Shown here: positions 23,569 to 33,540 of the stretch, piece by piece
How the letters are laid out: every line of letters starts with the position of its first letter
How positions within the stretch are numbered: position 1 is the first letter of the stretch
From: a virus
Length of the DNA: 34,194 bases
Virus record (IMG/VR): IMGVR_UViG_3300020140_000033
Coordinates: 1 to 34,194 of that record
Direction: 5' to 3' (one strand)
Notes under the pieces: model-generated
What the model saw: only the letters and a program-made list of their open reading frames with translations
Databases searched by the model: none
What the model was told of the DNA's origin: nothing
Translations under genes and position numbers: made by a program

Positions 23569-23832
23569 CTACCAGGTCATATTCTCCACCACCCACTGCA
23601 ATATGTCCTCTTGCGTGAACGGTACAGGGTCACCGTCCAAAAGGGCAGCCCTCATCGCGGCATGCGCAACGCCTTCACAGAAAACGAATCTGGAGTCGTC
23701 TTTGCATACTGGACAATCCACCGTCGTCATCCCTGGCGATAAGAACGGCCGGTGACAGCAGTTGCACGAGCCGAACGTCTCCAGGCTGGCCAAGATTGCC
23801 TTAAATTCCTCTATGCTTGGGTCTTCAGTCAT
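23569..23832 (-). CDS. Zinc-ribbon paralogue C, 87 aa
   Basis: The ATG at 23832 overlaps the preceding frame and gives MTEDPSIEEFKAILASLETFGSC. CNCC and CPVC, 13 residues apart, form a zinc ribbon, with the signature RPFLSPGM between them. The longer frame up to 23934 is not used because that part covers the previous gene. It is the last of three tandem related genes and the end of the early operon. The family's N-terminus (P-x-x-x-EFK-x-x-L, then C-x-x-C) is shared by all three. Function unknown. Confidence 0.65.
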   Translation of the reverse strand: MTEDPSIEEFKAILASLETFGSCNCCHRPFLSPGMTTVDCPVCKDDSRFVFCEGVAHAAMRAALLDGDPVPFTQEDILQWVVENMTW

Positions 23833-24056
23833 TGTCTGCTGTACTTTCCAATGAAGGCAGAATAATTTGGCCACGGCGAATTTGCACACGACCCCTGAAA
23901 AGCCTTTCGATCCATTCTGGATGAACTTGCGCAACTACTTGCCACATTGGCGCGCAGATTGGGCATTCTAGGACGGCGACAAGTTGGACATCGGGCGTAA
24001 ATCTTCAGGTTGCGCAGGATGATTTTGAACTCGGCTGTGGTTGGATTTTCACTCAT
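23825..24056 (-). pseudogene. Zinc-ribbon paralogue B, frameshifted
   Basis: The N-terminus (MSENPTTAEFKIILRNLKIYARCPTCRRP) matches its two neighbours. The region that should carry the second cysteine pair is 26 bases shorter than in them: 13 bases lie between the first knuckle and the next CPxC codons, where the others have 39. The continuing frame then reads an unlikely sequence to a stop at 23829. The +1 frame instead reads ECPICAPMWQVVAQVHPEWIE and on to a stop at 23825, a natural-looking continuation with the expected second cysteine pair. So a 26-base deletion appears to have broken this copy. Neighbour overlaps (ATGA) are intact. Confidence 0.65.
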
Positions 24057-24397
24057 AAGAAGTCAGGGGGCAGGCCCATGATGGAGCACACGTCCGGAAT
24101 CGAATTCTTGTATAAGTCGAACAGCACCGGACAGAAGCGCGGTGGTTTTTTGCGGATGATCCGGATTTCGTACTCGATCTGGGGATGGGGAATGATCGCT
24201 ATTTGCGTGGCGATTCTGTGCAGCCAACGATAAGTTCTCGGGTCTAGGCTATCGGGGTTAAAACTACAAACCGGGCACTCAAACTTTTCCATGCCTGGGC
24301 GCAGGAAAGGTCTATTGCAGACCAAGCAGTTGCCGTACGTGGTAATGCTGGACAAAACCGTCTTGAACTCCGCTACAGTTGGGCTTTCCGGGATCAT
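24053..24397 (-). CDS. Zinc-ribbon paralogue A, 114 aa
   Basis: The ATG at 24397 overlaps the initiator gene's stop by 4 bases and gives MIPESPTVAEFKTVLSS. CLVC and CPVC, 13 residues apart, with RPFLRPGM between them, form a zinc ribbon. The C-terminal 60 residues are less conserved but contain helix-forming segments (YRWLHRIATQIAII, EYEIRIIRKK). It is the longest of the three tandem paralogues. Being next to the replication initiator suggests a DNA-linked role, but this is only context. Confidence 0.65.
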   Translation of the reverse strand: MIPESPTVAEFKTVLSSITTYGNCLVCNRPFLRPGMEKFECPVCSFNPDSLDPRTYRWLHRIATQIAIIPHPQIEYEIRIIRKKPPRFCPVLFDLYKNSIPDVCSIMGLPPDFL

Positions 24398-25962
24398 TTC
24401 CAATTGATGGATGTTTTCTTGCCGGGTAACAGCTTGAGGTTGGTGAGCGCCTGGCCAACGATTGCGTACTTATCTTCGTACAGATCGCCCTCACTGAATC
24501 CCTGCCGATAAAGCTCAAGCACCTTGTCGAGCCAGCGCTTTTCTGGCTTTAGTTCGGGATCGTTTCCTTTAAGCCACTCTTTGAGGTTCGAATAAATTGA
24601 GTACCAGCCATCCTCCGGTTTATACAGTTCCGCTCCGTCTTCCCGATAATACTTGTTGGGGTTTTTGACCAGACCACGCTTTTCGAGCCTGCCGGTCAAC
24701 CAGTCCTGAACCTGCTCCAGGGTTCGTTCTGCAAATTTGAGCTTGTAGCCAGATTCTTTGGCAAGCTCTTGCCGGAGAGCATCGATACCGATACGGCCGC
24801 TCGTCGAGTACGTCTTGAACAAACCAGCCAATCCATTTTTACCGCCGTCAGGCGAACATAGGAGTGCCCAGCAATTCTGGATATGACCGTTGTCTTCTGT
24901 AACCCCTTGCTTTGACCAGAACCAACCGGCAACGATTACCAGGACATAGTCTGCCGCGTCCCAGTTCAGGGTTGGGTCAACTTTGATTAACCCTTCTTCG
25001 AAGTTATCCAGTGAAAGCTTTGGGGCGCTATCGAAGACGAGCCGGTGATATACTCCTACATGATACCGAACCAAAGCTGCTTTTTGGGTTGGGGTAAGTT
25101 CTGTATCCTCTACGTCTATCTCTTCAAGCTCACCGGGAAAGGTCTCCCATCCGGATACTTCTGGTTCCTCCTGCATTGAGGGGCGCGGAGCGCCCCGCAG
25201 CGCCGAAGGCGCAAGCTCCGAAGGAGCGATCACACCACACACATTCGACGGTATTGTGGTGTTGTTCTGTTGTGCTTCAGAAGACATTAAGACAGTTACC
25301 CCCTTCAAGGGTGTCTCTATACCCCCTTCAAGAGCTTCTCTATACCCCGTTGAAGAGCATCTCTTTACCCCCTTCAAGGGGGTATTGACTTTCGGTGTCT
25401 GTGCCCCGTTCAAGGGGGTATTGACCGGATCGTCGCTTAAGCTGGCGCGCTTCTTTTTTTCAGGTGGTTTACTTGCTTTTTTCAGCGCGTCTACAATCGC
25501 GGGTATGATTGGCCAGACGTAAATGTTCCAGTCTTTCGGCTTGCCCTCGCTGTTATGCACCGGCTCTCTCCGGCGTCCGATGAGTCCTGCCTTGAGCAGT
25601 CGGCCCAGGCACTTGCTGATAACGTCTGGCTCGCAATCGAAATCGTGCGCCAGTTGCCCTCGGTTAATTCGATACGACGGGCCGTCCCACCAGGGCTGGT
25701 GCTTTTCCAAGACCCTGACCTGACCAATGATGTGCGCCAACACCATGGCGCACACGGCATCGGCGTAGGTCCGTCGAGTCTGCCGAATCTTGATGGCTTT
25801 TCCCTTCGATTTGGACACACGGCGGGGTACTGCCCCAAGCAGATAGTGCGGCAAAATATCACCTCTAAGTTCCGCGTGATGGATTCGCCAAAGCTCTATG
25901 GCCCTTTGCGTCTCCGGATCGAGCGTGCGCGCCGGTTTGCCGTCGCCGTTATTGGTGCTCAT
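24394..25962 (-). CDS. Phage replication initiator with internal iterons (lambda-O-like), 522 aa
   Basis: The N-terminal 170 residues hold a winged helix-turn-helix (NRGQLAHDFDCEPDVISKCLGRLLKAGLIGRRR). Residues about 170-300 are a low-complexity linker whose DNA carries iteron-like repeats (25297-25420) and a set of hairpins (25180-25227). The C-terminal half is a separate helical domain (LTPTQKAALVRYHVGVYH, then DWLTGRLEKRGLVKNPNKYYRED). This plan matches lambda O, where the DNA-binding domain recognises iterons lying within the O gene. The initiator would open the origin and load a helicase; no helicase gene is visible here, so host DnaB/DnaC is assumed. It overlaps the next gene by 4 bases and has a structured 5' leader. 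Confidence 0.65.
   Translation of the reverse strand: MSTNNGDGKPARTLDPETQRAIELWRIHHAELRGDILPHYLLGAVPRRVSKSKGKAIKIRQTRRTYADAVCAMVLAHIIGQVRVLEKHQPWWDGPSYRINRGQLAHDFDCEPDVISKCLGRLLKAGLIGRRREPVHNSEGKPKDWNIYVWPIIPAIVDALKKASKPPEKKKRASLSDDPVNTPLNGAQTPKVNTPLKGVKRCSSTGYREALEGGIETPLKGVTVLMSSEAQQNNTTIPSNVCGVIAPSELAPSALRGAPRPSMQEEPEVSGWETFPGELEEIDVEDTELTPTQKAALVRYHVGVYHRLVFDSAPKLSLDNFEEGLIKVDPTLNWDAADYVLVIVAGWFWSKQGVTEDNGHIQNCWALLCSPDGGKNGLAGLFKTYSTSGRIGIDALRQELAKESGYKLKFAERTLEQVQDWLTGRLEKRGLVKNPNKYYREDGAELYKPEDGWYSIYSNLKEWLKGNDPELKPEKRWLDKVLELYRQGFSEGDLYEDKYAIVGQALTNLKLLPGKKTSINWK
25180..25227. repeat. Three short GC-rich hairpins in a row
   Basis: Three back-to-back inverted repeats lie in the linker-coding part of the initiator gene, about 70 bases from the iterons: GGGGCGC-GGA-GCGCCCC (25180-25196), GCGCC-GAA-GGCGC (25200-25212) and GCTCC-GAA-GGAGC (25215-25227). 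The last two share the same GAA loop. They encode Ala/Pro/Ser-rich linker residues, so they may be tolerated structure, part of the origin, or remains of a small palindromic insertion. Confidence 0.55.
25297..25420. repeat. Iteron-like repeats inside the initiator gene (putative replication origin)
   Basis: Five copies of a near-palindromic unit TACCCC(C/G)TT(C/G)AAG(G/A)G begin at 25297, 25320, 25343, 25366 and 25402. The first four are spaced exactly 23 bases and the last by 36. The fourth is a perfect dyad, TACCCCCTT-C-AAGGGGGTA. As 23 is not a multiple of 3, the repeats fall in different reading frames, so they are conserved as DNA and not as protein repeats. Repeats with dyad symmetry in an initiator gene linker are the plan of the lambda origin. 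An AT-richer stretch lies next to them at about 25245-25296. Confidence 0.65.
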
Positions 25963-25975
25963 AGGAGAAAAAAGA

Positions 25976-26054
25976 TGCCCGGACGTTGGCAGCGGGGCGC
26001 GTAGACAGGAGCAACTTTGCGTCGCTCTAAGTCAACCCCGATAACGTCCGGGCA
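25976..26054. promoter_or_regulatory. Perfect 12-bp inverted repeat in the leader of the initiator gene
   Basis: TGCCCGGACGTT (25976-25987) and AACGTCCGGGCA (26043-26054) are exact inverted copies about 55 bases apart, 13-92 bases upstream of the initiator start. They could fold into a long-loop hairpin in the mRNA or bind a dimeric regulator by looping. The region between them holds no gene. The gap between the initiator and the 81-residue gene (25963-26118) otherwise shows no clear features. Confidence 0.5.
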
Positions 26055-26118: not shown

Positions 26119-26364
26119 TCACGATCCGACTGTTAGAACGGAAACCATCCGCTCGGTGTTAACTACGGAGGCTAATTTTGGTTTCCGGTGATAACGCATG
26201 GCGTTCGCTCGCGACTTGCGACCCATGCTGTCTACATCCGCCCAGAGGGCTGCCAGTTCGAGGACGACGGGATCGTTATCTGCCAGCGGCTGGCAAAGTA
26301 GCTGGCAAGCCTCGACGTGAACTTTTACTGCCAGGCTGAGTTTATACTTGGATGGTTTCCTCAT
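26119..26364 (-). CDS. Hypothetical protein, 81 aa
   Basis: A basic helical protein (MRKPSKYKLSLAVKVHVEACQLL, later MGRKSRANAMRYHRKPK). No motif is recognised. It overlaps the upstream winged-helix gene by 4 bases, so it is part of the leftward early operon. The charge pattern is compatible with nucleic acid binding. Confidence 0.55.
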   Translation of the reverse strand: MRKPSKYKLSLAVKVHVEACQLLCQPLADNDPVVLELAALWADVDSMGRKSRANAMRYHRKPKLASVVNTERMVSVLTVGS

Positions 26365-26699
26365 GTGTTGGTGGTTCTGTTTTCGTTTAGGATTTCCAGG
26401 GCCTTGCGCTCGCTGCGTAATCGATATTCAAAGACTCGACGTGATCCGGATGCTTCCTTTCGCGAGCGCCGATGTCGCCCAGTTTGTTCGATCACGCCGT
26501 ACTTCAGCAGCACGCGAAAGGCGGACCCAACACAGTTTAGGCTCCATGGATCGACGCCGGTCAAATTAACGTGGTGGGGATAGAAGCTTTGCCAGTGAAG
26601 CGCCGCCTCGATAATCCGCTGTCTGATTAACCGGCTGGCTTTGGGTCTTGCTCGCTCCTGGCGCTGGGCTATGACGTCGAGGTGCTGCTGTGCGCTCAT
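26361..26699 (-). CDS. Winged helix-like early protein, 112 aa
   Basis: Helical N-terminus (QHLDVIAQRQERARPKASRLIRQRIIEAALHWQSF) and a middle part that looks like a winged helix-turn-helix (SAFRVLLKYGVIEQTGRHRRSRKEASGSRRVFEYRL), with a basic hairpin as in DNA-binding wings. It overlaps both neighbours by 4 bases in the early operon, and could regulate or aid replication. Specific family not recognised. Confidence 0.55.
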   Translation of the reverse strand: MSAQQHLDVIAQRQERARPKASRLIRQRIIEAALHWQSFYPHHVNLTGVDPWSLNCVGSAFRVLLKYGVIEQTGRHRRSRKEASGSRRVFEYRLRSERKALEILNENRTTNT

Positions 26700-27151: not shown

Positions 27152-27403
27152 TTATTTGCTAACCTTCCGCTCCGCCTCACCCACTAACTCCTTCAACGAG
27201 ATGCCGAGCGCCCGGGCAATGGCAAACACCTTCTCCACAGTTGGCGACGCTTTGCCTGATTCAATCATCCCTGGGTACGTCTGACTGAGACCTGCCCTTT
27301 CAGCCAGGCCAGCCAGCGATAATCCTGCCTTTTCCCTTCGCCGCTTAATCTCGGCGGCCAGGGCAGAGGAAATATCGATATCGTCGTGGCGAGCTTTGGC
27401 CAT
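27152..27403 (-). CDS. XRE-family transcriptional repressor, 83 aa
   Basis: The central segment is a Cro/C1-type helix-turn-helix (AEIKRRREKAGLSLAGLAERAGLSQTYPGMIESGKASPTVEKVFAIARALGISL split over residues about 17-70, with LSLAGLAERAGL and SQTYPGMIESG as the two helices). Short XRE proteins of this size without a peptidase domain serve as phage repressors or Cro-like regulators. It is divergent from the cargo gene at 27507 with two palindromes between them, so it probably controls that region, its own gene, or both. No self-cleavage domain is present, so induction would work without RecA-type cleavage. Confidence 0.8.
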   Translation of the reverse strand: MAKARHDDIDISSALAAEIKRRREKAGLSLAGLAERAGLSQTYPGMIESGKASPTVEKVFAIARALGISLKELVGEAERKVSK

Positions 27404-30974: not shown

Positions 30975-31010
30975 CATTCCGTGGATTACCCGACGACAGC
31001 GACCGTACAT

Positions 31011-31045
31011 CCTCGGCCTGATTCGCATTGGCGTTCGGGCCGAGG
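31011..31045 (+). terminator. 8-bp hairpin between the secreted protein genes
   Basis: CCTCGGCC (31011-31018) and GGCCGAGG (31038-31045) are perfect inverted copies with a 19-base loop, 37 bases after the 28536-30974 gene and just before a GAGGAG Shine-Dalgarno-like stretch. No T-run follows, so it may be a processing or attenuation structure and not a strict terminator. Confidence 0.35.
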
Positions 31046-31067
31046 AGATTTACTATTTGTGGACATT

Positions 31068-31610
31068 ATGAAGGTCGTTCGATCCCTGCTGGCAATAGCC
31101 GTGCTCTGCATGACGTTCAACGCACGGGCTAACTGGTTATTTAAATGGCACTATATCTATCCCCAGTTTCAAAAGTTCCAAGGCAGTTTTGAGGTAACCG
31201 ACGCAGAGATGCAACCGGGTGCCACGTTTGACAGCGATCTGTTTCTAAATTCGATCTCCATTACCAGTCCCGAAGGCATTACATATCGAGGTGATGACCC
31301 AAGCTGGTCCGACGCCTACGGTTCACTGGCCCCGACTCCGCAAATTTTTATGAATCTGCATGATTCGTCGCACAGCATCAGTTTGGATGTATTTGGAAGC
31401 GGTCCAACTTTTGAGGGGAACCTTTACGAGTTTTTTCCTGGTGGAACAACCGTCACTGAGCACGGCTGGTGGACCTATCAGCAGATTCCAGAACCGTCTA
31501 CGACAGCACTTTTTGTCGCTGGTGGAATGATTTTCCTGCTAAGCAAGAGTTCCACGGGACTACTCCAGAAACCGGGCCAGGACGAAGATCGCAAGCCCTG
31601 CCAGAAATAG
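31068..31610 (+). CDS. PEP-CTERM surface-sorted protein, 180 aa (cargo)
   Basis: The ATG at 31068 gives a signal peptide (KVVRSLLAIAVLCMTFNARAN); an in-frame GTG at 31059 is an alternative with a GAGGAG upstream. The body is beta-rich. The C-terminus has the sorting tripartite signal of exosortase (EpsH) substrates: a PEP motif (IPEPSTTA), a transmembrane stretch (LFVAGGMIFLL) and then a basic/polar tail, although the tail is longer than usual (it ends RKPCQK). Known PEP-CTERM proteins are placed on the cell surface or into extracellular polysaccharide by host exosortase. Its last 51 bases overlap a leftward gene. Confidence 0.75.
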   Translation: MKVVRSLLAIAVLCMTFNARANWLFKWHYIYPQFQKFQGSFEVTDAEMQPGATFDSDLFLNSISITSPEGITYRGDDPSWSDAYGSLAPTPQIFMNLHDSSHSISLDVFGSGPTFEGNLYEFFPGGTTVTEHGWWTYQQIPEPSTTALFVAGGMIFLLSKSSTGLLQKPGQDEDRKPCQK

Positions 31611-31917: not shown

Positions 31918-33540
31918 ATGAAACCAGAAAAGACAGCTTATAGTTACATCCGATTCTCAACACCCGATCAAGCCCTTGGCGGTAGCGAGGACCGCCAACT
32001 GGAGGAAGCCAAAGCTTACTGTAAACAGCAGGGTTTGCGCCTCTCCGAAAAGACCTTTGCCGACAGAGGCATCTCCGCCTTCCACGGCAAGCATCGCAAG
32101 AAAGGGAACACTAAAAACCCGGATGGACTAAAAGCCCTGCTGGAACTGGTCAAGCCGGGTGAGGTTATTTTGATTGAAGATATTGACCGTTGGAGTCGCG
32201 AGAATGCTTTCGAGAGCGTCAATGAGATTCGTACCGTCGTTAAACGCGGTGTGGAAATTCATTTTACCAAGCAGCGAGTGGTAGTGAACACGGAGACGTT
32301 GGAAATGGACCATGTCGAATGGCTGCTCTTCTCTGGTGGAAAACGCGCCAACGGTGAGAGCAAGCGCAAGTGCGAGCTAATCCAGGCTGACTGGGACAAA
32401 AAACGCGCACTTGCCCGCAGCGGAAAGCCGGTCAGAATCAATCGGTTGCCTTGCTGGCTCAAGTGGGACGTGGAAGCCAGCAAGCCCGTTGTAATCGAAG
32501 CCAAAGCCCAGATTGTGCGCCACGTCTTCGAGTTGGCGCGGGCGGGCAATCGTACCCTGGAAATAGTCCGCAAGTTGCGACAGGAAAAGGTGCCGTCAGT
32601 GTCCAGCCAAAAGGGTGCGGAGTGGAACACGGTATTGGTCCGCAGGCTGCTCACCAACAAAGCGACATTGGGCTTTTACGTTCAGAGCGATCCGCCCGTC
32701 GCGAATGTCTGGCCAGCGATTGTAGACGAAGACCTTTACCATGGCGTGCAGGGCAGGCAGAACATCCACCCGCCCGATAAACGCCCGGGTGGAAAGAGAG
32801 AAAGCGAAACCAACTTGTTCACGGGCATTGCGCGTTGCGGCTGCTGCAACCGTTACAATCTTAACGCGCACATTGGCGGGAAGAGCGGCACACCCAAGTT
32901 GATTTGCCAAGCCGGTCATAGAGGTTCGACCGATTGCAGACATTTCAGCGTGCCGATTGCGCTGGTTGAGAATTCCTGTCTAAGCTTCCTGGCATCGGCC
33001 GATTTGATTCGTCCGCTGCTGGTTGCTGGCCAGCCAAAGCCGTCGAAGGTTTTGGAGTTGCAAGGTAGGTTGGCTGACGCTGAGAAACAGGTTACCAAGC
33101 TTACCAGCTTGATTATGGGCGATAGTGAACCATCACCCACGCTGTACGCGCGGTTGAAGTTGGAGGAAGCCAAAACAAAAACATTGCGATTACAGATTGA
33201 CGAAGAGCAGGCACGGGAGCGCGCCGAACGCCCAGCGAGCATCGCCTATGGCGAATTTGTCAGTAACCTGCCCGCGCTCAAAGCGAACGTTGCCCGACGT
33301 CCAGATTTGCGAAAGGCAATTGCACAGGTTGTAGAGAAGCTGGTCCTCGACCCACGCCCGGTAACCAAGCCGGACAAAAACAAACCACACCTGATCAAAT
33401 CGTGGGCGTACCAGTTATATCTGCGCGGCGCGAGTGGCGTGCCAATCAACTTCACTATTTGCAAAAACGGTGACTGGGCCAGCGATTTGATCGCCAAACT
33501 CGACTACGTCGAGACGCAAAAGGAAATGGCAGCCGCGTAG
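31918..33540 (+). CDS. Large serine recombinase (phage integrase), 540 aa
   Basis: N-terminal resolvase domain with the catalytic Ser in YSYIRFSTPDQ (Ser14) and conserved DRWSREN segment near residue 92. The recombinase domain follows, and then a zinc-ribbon-like region (C307 and C310, C330, C340) and a coiled-coil and C-terminal part. This is the standard plan of large serine integrases, which join short att sites without host factors. It has no clear ribosome-binding site. A hairpin terminator is at 33615-33646 and an excisionase-like gene follows. A close paralogue of its C-terminal half is at 1-666. Confidence 0.9.
   Translation: MKPEKTAYSYIRFSTPDQALGGSEDRQLEEAKAYCKQQGLRLSEKTFADRGISAFHGKHRKKGNTKNPDGLKALLELVKPGEVILIEDIDRWSRENAFESVNEIRTVVKRGVEIHFTKQRVVVNTETLEMDHVEWLLFSGGKRANGESKRKCELIQADWDKKRALARSGKPVRINRLPCWLKWDVEASKPVVIEAKAQIVRHVFELARAGNRTLEIVRKLRQEKVPSVSSQKGAEWNTVLVRRLLTNKATLGFYVQSDPPVANVWPAIVDEDLYHGVQGRQNIHPPDKRPGGKRESETNLFTGIARCGCCNRYNLNAHIGGKSGTPKLICQAGHRGSTDCRHFSVPIALVENSCLSFLASADLIRPLLVAGQPKPSKVLELQGRLADAEKQVTKLTSLIMGDSEPSPTLYARLKLEEAKTKTLRLQIDEEQARERAERPASIAYGEFVSNLPALKANVARRPDLRKAIAQVVEKLVLDPRPVTKPDKNKPHLIKSWAYQLYLRGASGVPINFTICKNGDWASDLIAKLDYVETQKEMAAA

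What the first reader, a model, noticed from the sequence alone, without database searches (positions are those of the whole stretch)
25297..25420. Iterons at an exact 23-bp period inside the initiator gene (putative lambda-O-type origin)
Five near-palindromic units (TACCCC...TT(C/G)AA...G) begin at 25297, 25320, 25343, 25366 and 25402. The first four have a strict 23-base spacing that does not keep reading frame, so the conservation acts on DNA. They lie in the low-complexity linker of a protein with an N-terminal winged helix and a separate C-terminal domain. Lambda O has the same plan. The initiator looks unrelated to O in sequence, so this may be a new family of self-encoded origin.
Basis: partly seen in the sequence, partly recalled or inferred. 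Interest (0 to 1): 0.75.

Follow-up and report, generated by a model that had tools for sequence, protein, structure and literature searches.

The report
Phage replication origin inside initiator gene
A little-known prophage carries a row of short repeated DNA signals, spaced 23 bases apart, inside the gene for its probable replication-starter protein, the same layout as the origin of phage lambda, but with a protein that has no recognisable relatives.

Summary
Five units lie at 25297, 25320, 25343, 25366 and 25402. The conserved part is the half-site TACCCCnTTSAA, not the whole palindrome: only 25366 is a perfect dyad. They occur nowhere else in the window (up to one mismatch). The 23-bp copies are read in three frames. 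In 20,000 synonymous recodings of the same peptide the half-site count never exceeds 3 (observed 6), and the core is 92% conserved against 61% for the rest of each unit, so selection acts on DNA.

The host gene (24394-25962, minus strand) encodes a 522-aa protein with a predicted winged helix (aa 63-163) just before the array. Best reading: an in-gene iteron origin bound by its own initiator, as in lambda O. Lambda's iterons are spaced 20/24/23 bp at the same place. Two further phage initiator genes of the O-related set show period-23, out-of-frame in-gene arrays with different iteron sequences; twelve control genes show none that stands out.

The architecture is therefore known. What is new is the initiator: no Pfam, PHROG or NCBIfam family, and no relative found. 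The C-terminal domain, an AT-rich unwinding tract, a helicase loader and actual binding are not shown.

The parts
24394..25962 (-). putative replication initiator gene, 522 aa
   Evidence: single long ORF between the repressor and the terminase genes; no family match
25474..25776 (-). predicted winged-helix DNA-binding domain, aa 63-163
   Evidence: pLDDT about 70-80 over most of it; winged-helix proteins and phage/plasmid replication initiators among the structural matches
25297..25315 (+). iteron unit 1, half-site TACCCCCTTCAA
25320..25338 (+). iteron unit 2, half-site TACCCCCTTCAA
25343..25361 (+). iteron unit 3, half-site TACCCCGTTGAA
25366..25384 (+). iteron unit 4, perfect palindrome TACCCCCTTCAAGGGGGTA
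25402..25420 (-). iteron unit 5; perfect half-site on the minus strand (TACCCCCTTGAA), one mismatch on the plus strand
25259..25298 (.). weakly paired stretch abutting the array on the gene's 3' side; candidate unwinding region, weak evidence
   Evidence: 2.5th percentile of stability; about 10% of random anchors do as well
24397..25095 (-). C-terminal region of the initiator, about aa 290-522, fold unknown
   Evidence: pLDDT mostly under 50

Best explanation
The array is the phage's replication origin, placed inside the gene of its own initiator. After derepression the gene is transcribed from the early region. The protein's N-terminal winged helix binds the TACCCCnTTSAA half-sites. Several initiators assemble on units spaced about two helical turns apart (as the O-some does), the flanking DNA is opened, and the C-terminal part brings in the host helicase directly or through an unrecognised partner. 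Shown: the repeats, their DNA-level constraint, their place right after a predicted winged helix, and the same plan in lambda O and other phage initiators. Inferred: binding by this protein, melting, helicase recruitment and actual initiation.
For: Repeats unique to the gene and far beyond chance. Synonymous recoding gives at most 3 exact half-sites in 20,000 trials (6 observed); period-23 self-identity is 0.525 against a maximum of 0.475; core 92% versus rest 61% conserved; copies in three frames. Winged helix before the array, with BFVD matches including DnaD of phage PM1, protein O of phage Min27 and a lambda gpO N-terminal protein, E about 2e-3 to 2e-2. Lambda O: annotated iterons at 39034/39054/39078/39101, spacing 20, 24, 23, after the N-terminal domain. 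The same in-gene test finds period 23 for lambda O, Acba_3 gp36 and Ab1656-2 O, and nothing that stands out in eleven other genes of the window or lambda P. A scan by DNA pattern alone for tandem ACCCCnTTSAA landed in phage initiator-type genes in 17 of 21 stretches, about four of eight independent groups. No other replication gene was recognised in the proteins scanned.
Against: No homologue, so persistence of the array cannot be tested. The protein matches no replication family (best PHROG replication hit E = 0.1). No strong AT-rich tract. No helicase loader found downstream, unlike lambda. No binding or replication data.
Confidence: 0.77

Rival explanations
1. The repeats are operators for another DNA-binding protein of the phage, such as the repressor (27152-27403) or a small basic protein that may be a winged helix (26361-26699), and regulate transcription through the gene.
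For: Both genes lie within 2 kb; palindromic units suit a dimer; one unit reads as a terminator-like hairpin on the plus strand.
Against: Operators usually lie at promoters; no half-site occurs at the gene starts; an array of five at 23 bp in the linker of a winged-helix protein matches known origins better.
Confidence: 0.1
2. Recent tandem duplication in a disordered linker, with no function.
For: Linkers tolerate repeats; units 1-3 share flanks (TCTCTA) and units 4-5 share flanks (TATTGA), so duplication took part.
Against: The core is far better conserved (92%) than the rest (61%) across units, and half-sites are kept in three reading frames.
Confidence: 0.07
3. The palindromes act as RNA hairpins in the mRNA (attenuation or translational control).
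For: The array folds better than shuffles as RNA, z = -4.2.
Against: It folds equally well as DNA (z = -3.9), as any array of palindromes would; dyads are broken in units 2 and 3 (10 and 8 of 18) while half-sites stay intact; no Rfam match.
Confidence: 0.03
4. The array is a partition (centromere-like) site.
For: Iterated sites of this size also serve partition systems (general knowledge; no tool result supports it here).
Against: No ParA/ParB-like gene among the proteins scanned; a serine integrase indicates integration.
Confidence: 0.03

Closest known systems
Phage lambda O / ori-lambda
   Same: N-terminal winged helix, iterons in the middle of the initiator gene, spacing 20-24 bp, C-run/G-run arms in each iteron (ATCCCTCAAAACGAGGGA), some copies out of frame
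   Different: No sequence similarity of the protein (BLASTP E = 3); initiator 522 aa instead of 299; no downstream P-like loader found; unwinding tract weak instead of 0.1 percentile
SPP1 gp38 and oriL
   Same: Direct repeats bound by the initiator lie inside its own gene (PMC6316719)
   Different: SPP1 has a second origin away from the gene; no PHROG initiator family matches P0001 significantly; SPP1 encodes its own helicase and loader
HTH_36/DnaD_N-type phage initiators of L008 and L023
   Same: Two tandem CCCCATTCAA sites at a 22-bp period right after the winged helix, in both homologues at the same gene position
   Different: Different protein family (PF13730 match); fewer and non-palindromic units

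Membership tests
Lambda O family (PF04492 Phage_rep_O) | Match to the PF04492 profile | tested here: not met
   no match in the protein or the window
Lambda O family (PF04492 Phage_rep_O) | Sequence similarity to O proteins | tested here: not met
   BLASTP E = 3; hhalign probability 0.7% (small profile of four initiators)
Lambda O family (PF04492 Phage_rep_O) | N-terminal winged helix | tested here: met
   (pLDDT about 70-80); single-sequence model
Lambda O family (PF04492 Phage_rep_O) | Downstream P-type helicase loader | tested here: inconclusive
   no loader among the proteins scanned; an unrecognised one is possible
In-gene iteron origin (works like ori-lambda) | Four or more iterons inside the initiator gene, after the DNA-binding domain | tested here: met
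In-gene iteron origin (works like ori-lambda) | Period of about 20-24 bp | tested here: met
   23 bp here; lambda 20/24/23; Acba_3 and Ab1656-2 23
In-gene iteron origin (works like ori-lambda) | Constraint on DNA rather than on protein | tested here: met
In-gene iteron origin (works like ori-lambda) | AT-rich unwinding tract next to the iterons | tested here: inconclusive
   2.5th percentile, but about 10% of random anchors do as well
In-gene iteron origin (works like ori-lambda) | The initiator binds the iterons | not testable with these tools
   needs a binding assay

The most novel reading that the evidence does not exclude
The initiator founds a new family that loads the host helicase by itself with its large C-terminal region, and CCCCnTTSAA is an iteron core used again and again by unrelated phage initiators (this phage, the HTH_36 type of L008/L023, the L005 type), pointing to a shared but hidden mode of winged-helix recognition.
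Probability: 0.15. Interest if true: 0.6.

Novelty: new member of a known kind. Interest (0 to 1): 0.36.

Why it matters
It extends the lambda-type layout (origin inside the initiator gene, iterons one linker away from the winged helix, period about 23 bp) to a phage whose initiator shares no recognisable sequence with O. Layout and period may be kept longer than sequence, so a scan for out-of-frame 20-24-bp repeats inside phage genes could find initiators and origins that family searches miss.

Tried and rejected
Relatives of the initiator: three protein scans of viral contigs (whole, C-terminal and N-terminal part), one of genome contigs, tblastn on phages and plasmids, and 392 Planctomycetota genomes gave none; the three weak Planctomycetota hits lie in unrelated genes. 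These scans need exact 8-residue matches or tblastn similarity, and records very near the window may be left out, so absence is weak evidence. TerL and portal scans for relatives of the phage also failed. The exact palindrome is absent from viral contigs. Tandem half-sites in genome contigs: eight stretches, several of them low-complexity repeat genes such as EQGIERGIEQG proteins, one real prophage initiator (L023). GC skew does not turn at the array. One DnaA box in the window, far away. The C-terminal part folded alone gave pLDDT 38, so no fold search was made. The phiPSA1 and Lagaffe initiators show no in-gene period, and Highwayman and LZ35 only a weak one, so the plan is common but not universal.

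Full report
Setting. The window is a 34,194-base virus record. Its gene order is that of a temperate phage: serine integrase (31918-33540, +), HTH repressor (27152-27403, -), small early genes, the 522-aa gene (24394-25962, -), terminase, lambda-family portal (PF05136), ClpP-type head protease and tail genes. The host is unknown. A protein with a PEP-CTERM-like end at 30981-31610 suggests a Verrucomicrobiota-like bacterium; this is inference only.

The repeats. Units start at 25297, 25320, 25343, 25366 and 25402. The period-23 part is the strongest tandem repeat in the window. The half-site TACCCCnTTSAA occurs six times exactly and once with one mismatch, on both strands, and nowhere else in the window with up to one mismatch. 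Only unit 25366 is a perfect dyad; the others match at 8 to 14 of 18 positions. The half-site is therefore the conserved element.

Selection on DNA. The gene reads the four 23-bp copies in three frames, giving quite different peptides (ETPLKGVT, EALEGGIE, RCSSTGYR, NTPLKGVK). Recoding residues 179-225 with synonymous codons 20,000 times gave at most 3 exact half-sites; 6 are observed. Self-identity at period 23 is 0.525, above every recoded sequence (maximum 0.475). The 12-bp core is 92% identical among the four copies, the other 11 bp 61%. This favours purifying selection on the core over a recent neutral duplication, although shared flanks show that duplication took part.

The protein. No significant match in Pfam, PHROGs, NCBIfam or PDB sequences. 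A single-sequence AlphaFold model gives a winged helix at aa 63-163 (pLDDT about 70-80 over most of it) and nothing reliable elsewhere. Structural matches are winged-helix proteins at Z up to 9.1 (3fwe_A, rmsd 2.2, 70 aligned). In PDB they include the initiator entries 4pql/4pt7/5kbj, and among viral models the DnaD protein of phage PM1, O of phage Min27 and a lambda gpO N-terminal protein. The fold is common, so this supports DNA binding and no more.

Comparison with known origins. In lambda the annotated iterons lie in the O gene with spacings 20, 24 and 23, have C-run and G-run arms (ATCCCTCAAAACGAGGGA), bind O, and in related Stx phages are needed for replication of derived plasmids (PMC7466680). 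SPP1 oriL lies in gene 38 and is bound by gp38 (PMC6316719). I ran one test, best tandem self-match against synonymous recodings, on nine initiator-region genes of other phages, the window initiator and twelve control genes. Lambda O, Acba_3 gp36, Ab1656-2 O and the window gene peak at period 23 beyond the recodings in the 46-nt test; Pmp13 O does so at period 17; Highwayman and LZ35 show weak peaks at 23 and 24; phiPSA1 and Lagaffe show none. No control gene stands out. The lambda O signal is modest (2 of 300 recodings reached it in an earlier run); the window signal is the strongest of all. The iteron sequences differ among these phages, so layout is shared where sequence is not. The homologues L008 and L023 keep a 22-bp repeat at the same gene position.

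A scan by DNA alone. Searching 2.9 million viral contigs for two ACCCCnTTSAA sites 8-16 bases apart gave 21 stretches. Seventeen fall in genes of initiator type, in about four of eight independent groups: O-like proteins of Acinetobacter phages (near the gene's end, in frame), the HTH_36 type, and two groups whose assignment as replisome organizer or DnaD-like loader is weak. This links the motif to replication genes beyond this window.

What is missing. The weak-pairing stretch 25259-25298 abuts the array on the same side as lambda's AT-rich tract, but one random place in ten is as weak (lambda's is at the 0.1 percentile). No helicase loader, helicase or primase was recognised in the proteins scanned, whereas most of the compared initiators are followed by a loader or helicase gene. 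GC skew does not help.

Verdict. It works like ori-lambda; it is not a member of the O family by sequence. New member of a known kind, with an orphan initiator.

Noticed in passing
1-666 and 31918-33540: The left end encodes the last 221 residues of a second serine recombinase, 81% identical to the phage integrase; two related elements may lie in tandem in the host.
   Followed up: partly
25180-25227: Three GC-rich hairpins in a row (TTC and TCC loops) in the linker, on the 3' side of the array, folding better than shuffles as DNA (z = -3.7); may be an inserted palindromic element.
   Followed up: partly
23569-24403: Three neighbouring short ORFs downstream of the initiator are paralogues of a cysteine-rich, zinc-ribbon-like protein; the middle one looks truncated.
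   Followed up: partly
25976-25987 and 26043-26054: A perfect 12-bp inverted repeat (TGCCCGGACGTT) just upstream of the initiator's start codon; possible operator or hairpin.
   Followed up: no
26361-26699: A 112-aa basic protein upstream of the initiator that may be a second winged helix by eye; no family match.
   Followed up: no
L020:12300-12390: CCCC-TTCAA repeats in a 36-kb viral contig, in a low-complexity stretch of uncertain coding state.
   Followed up: no
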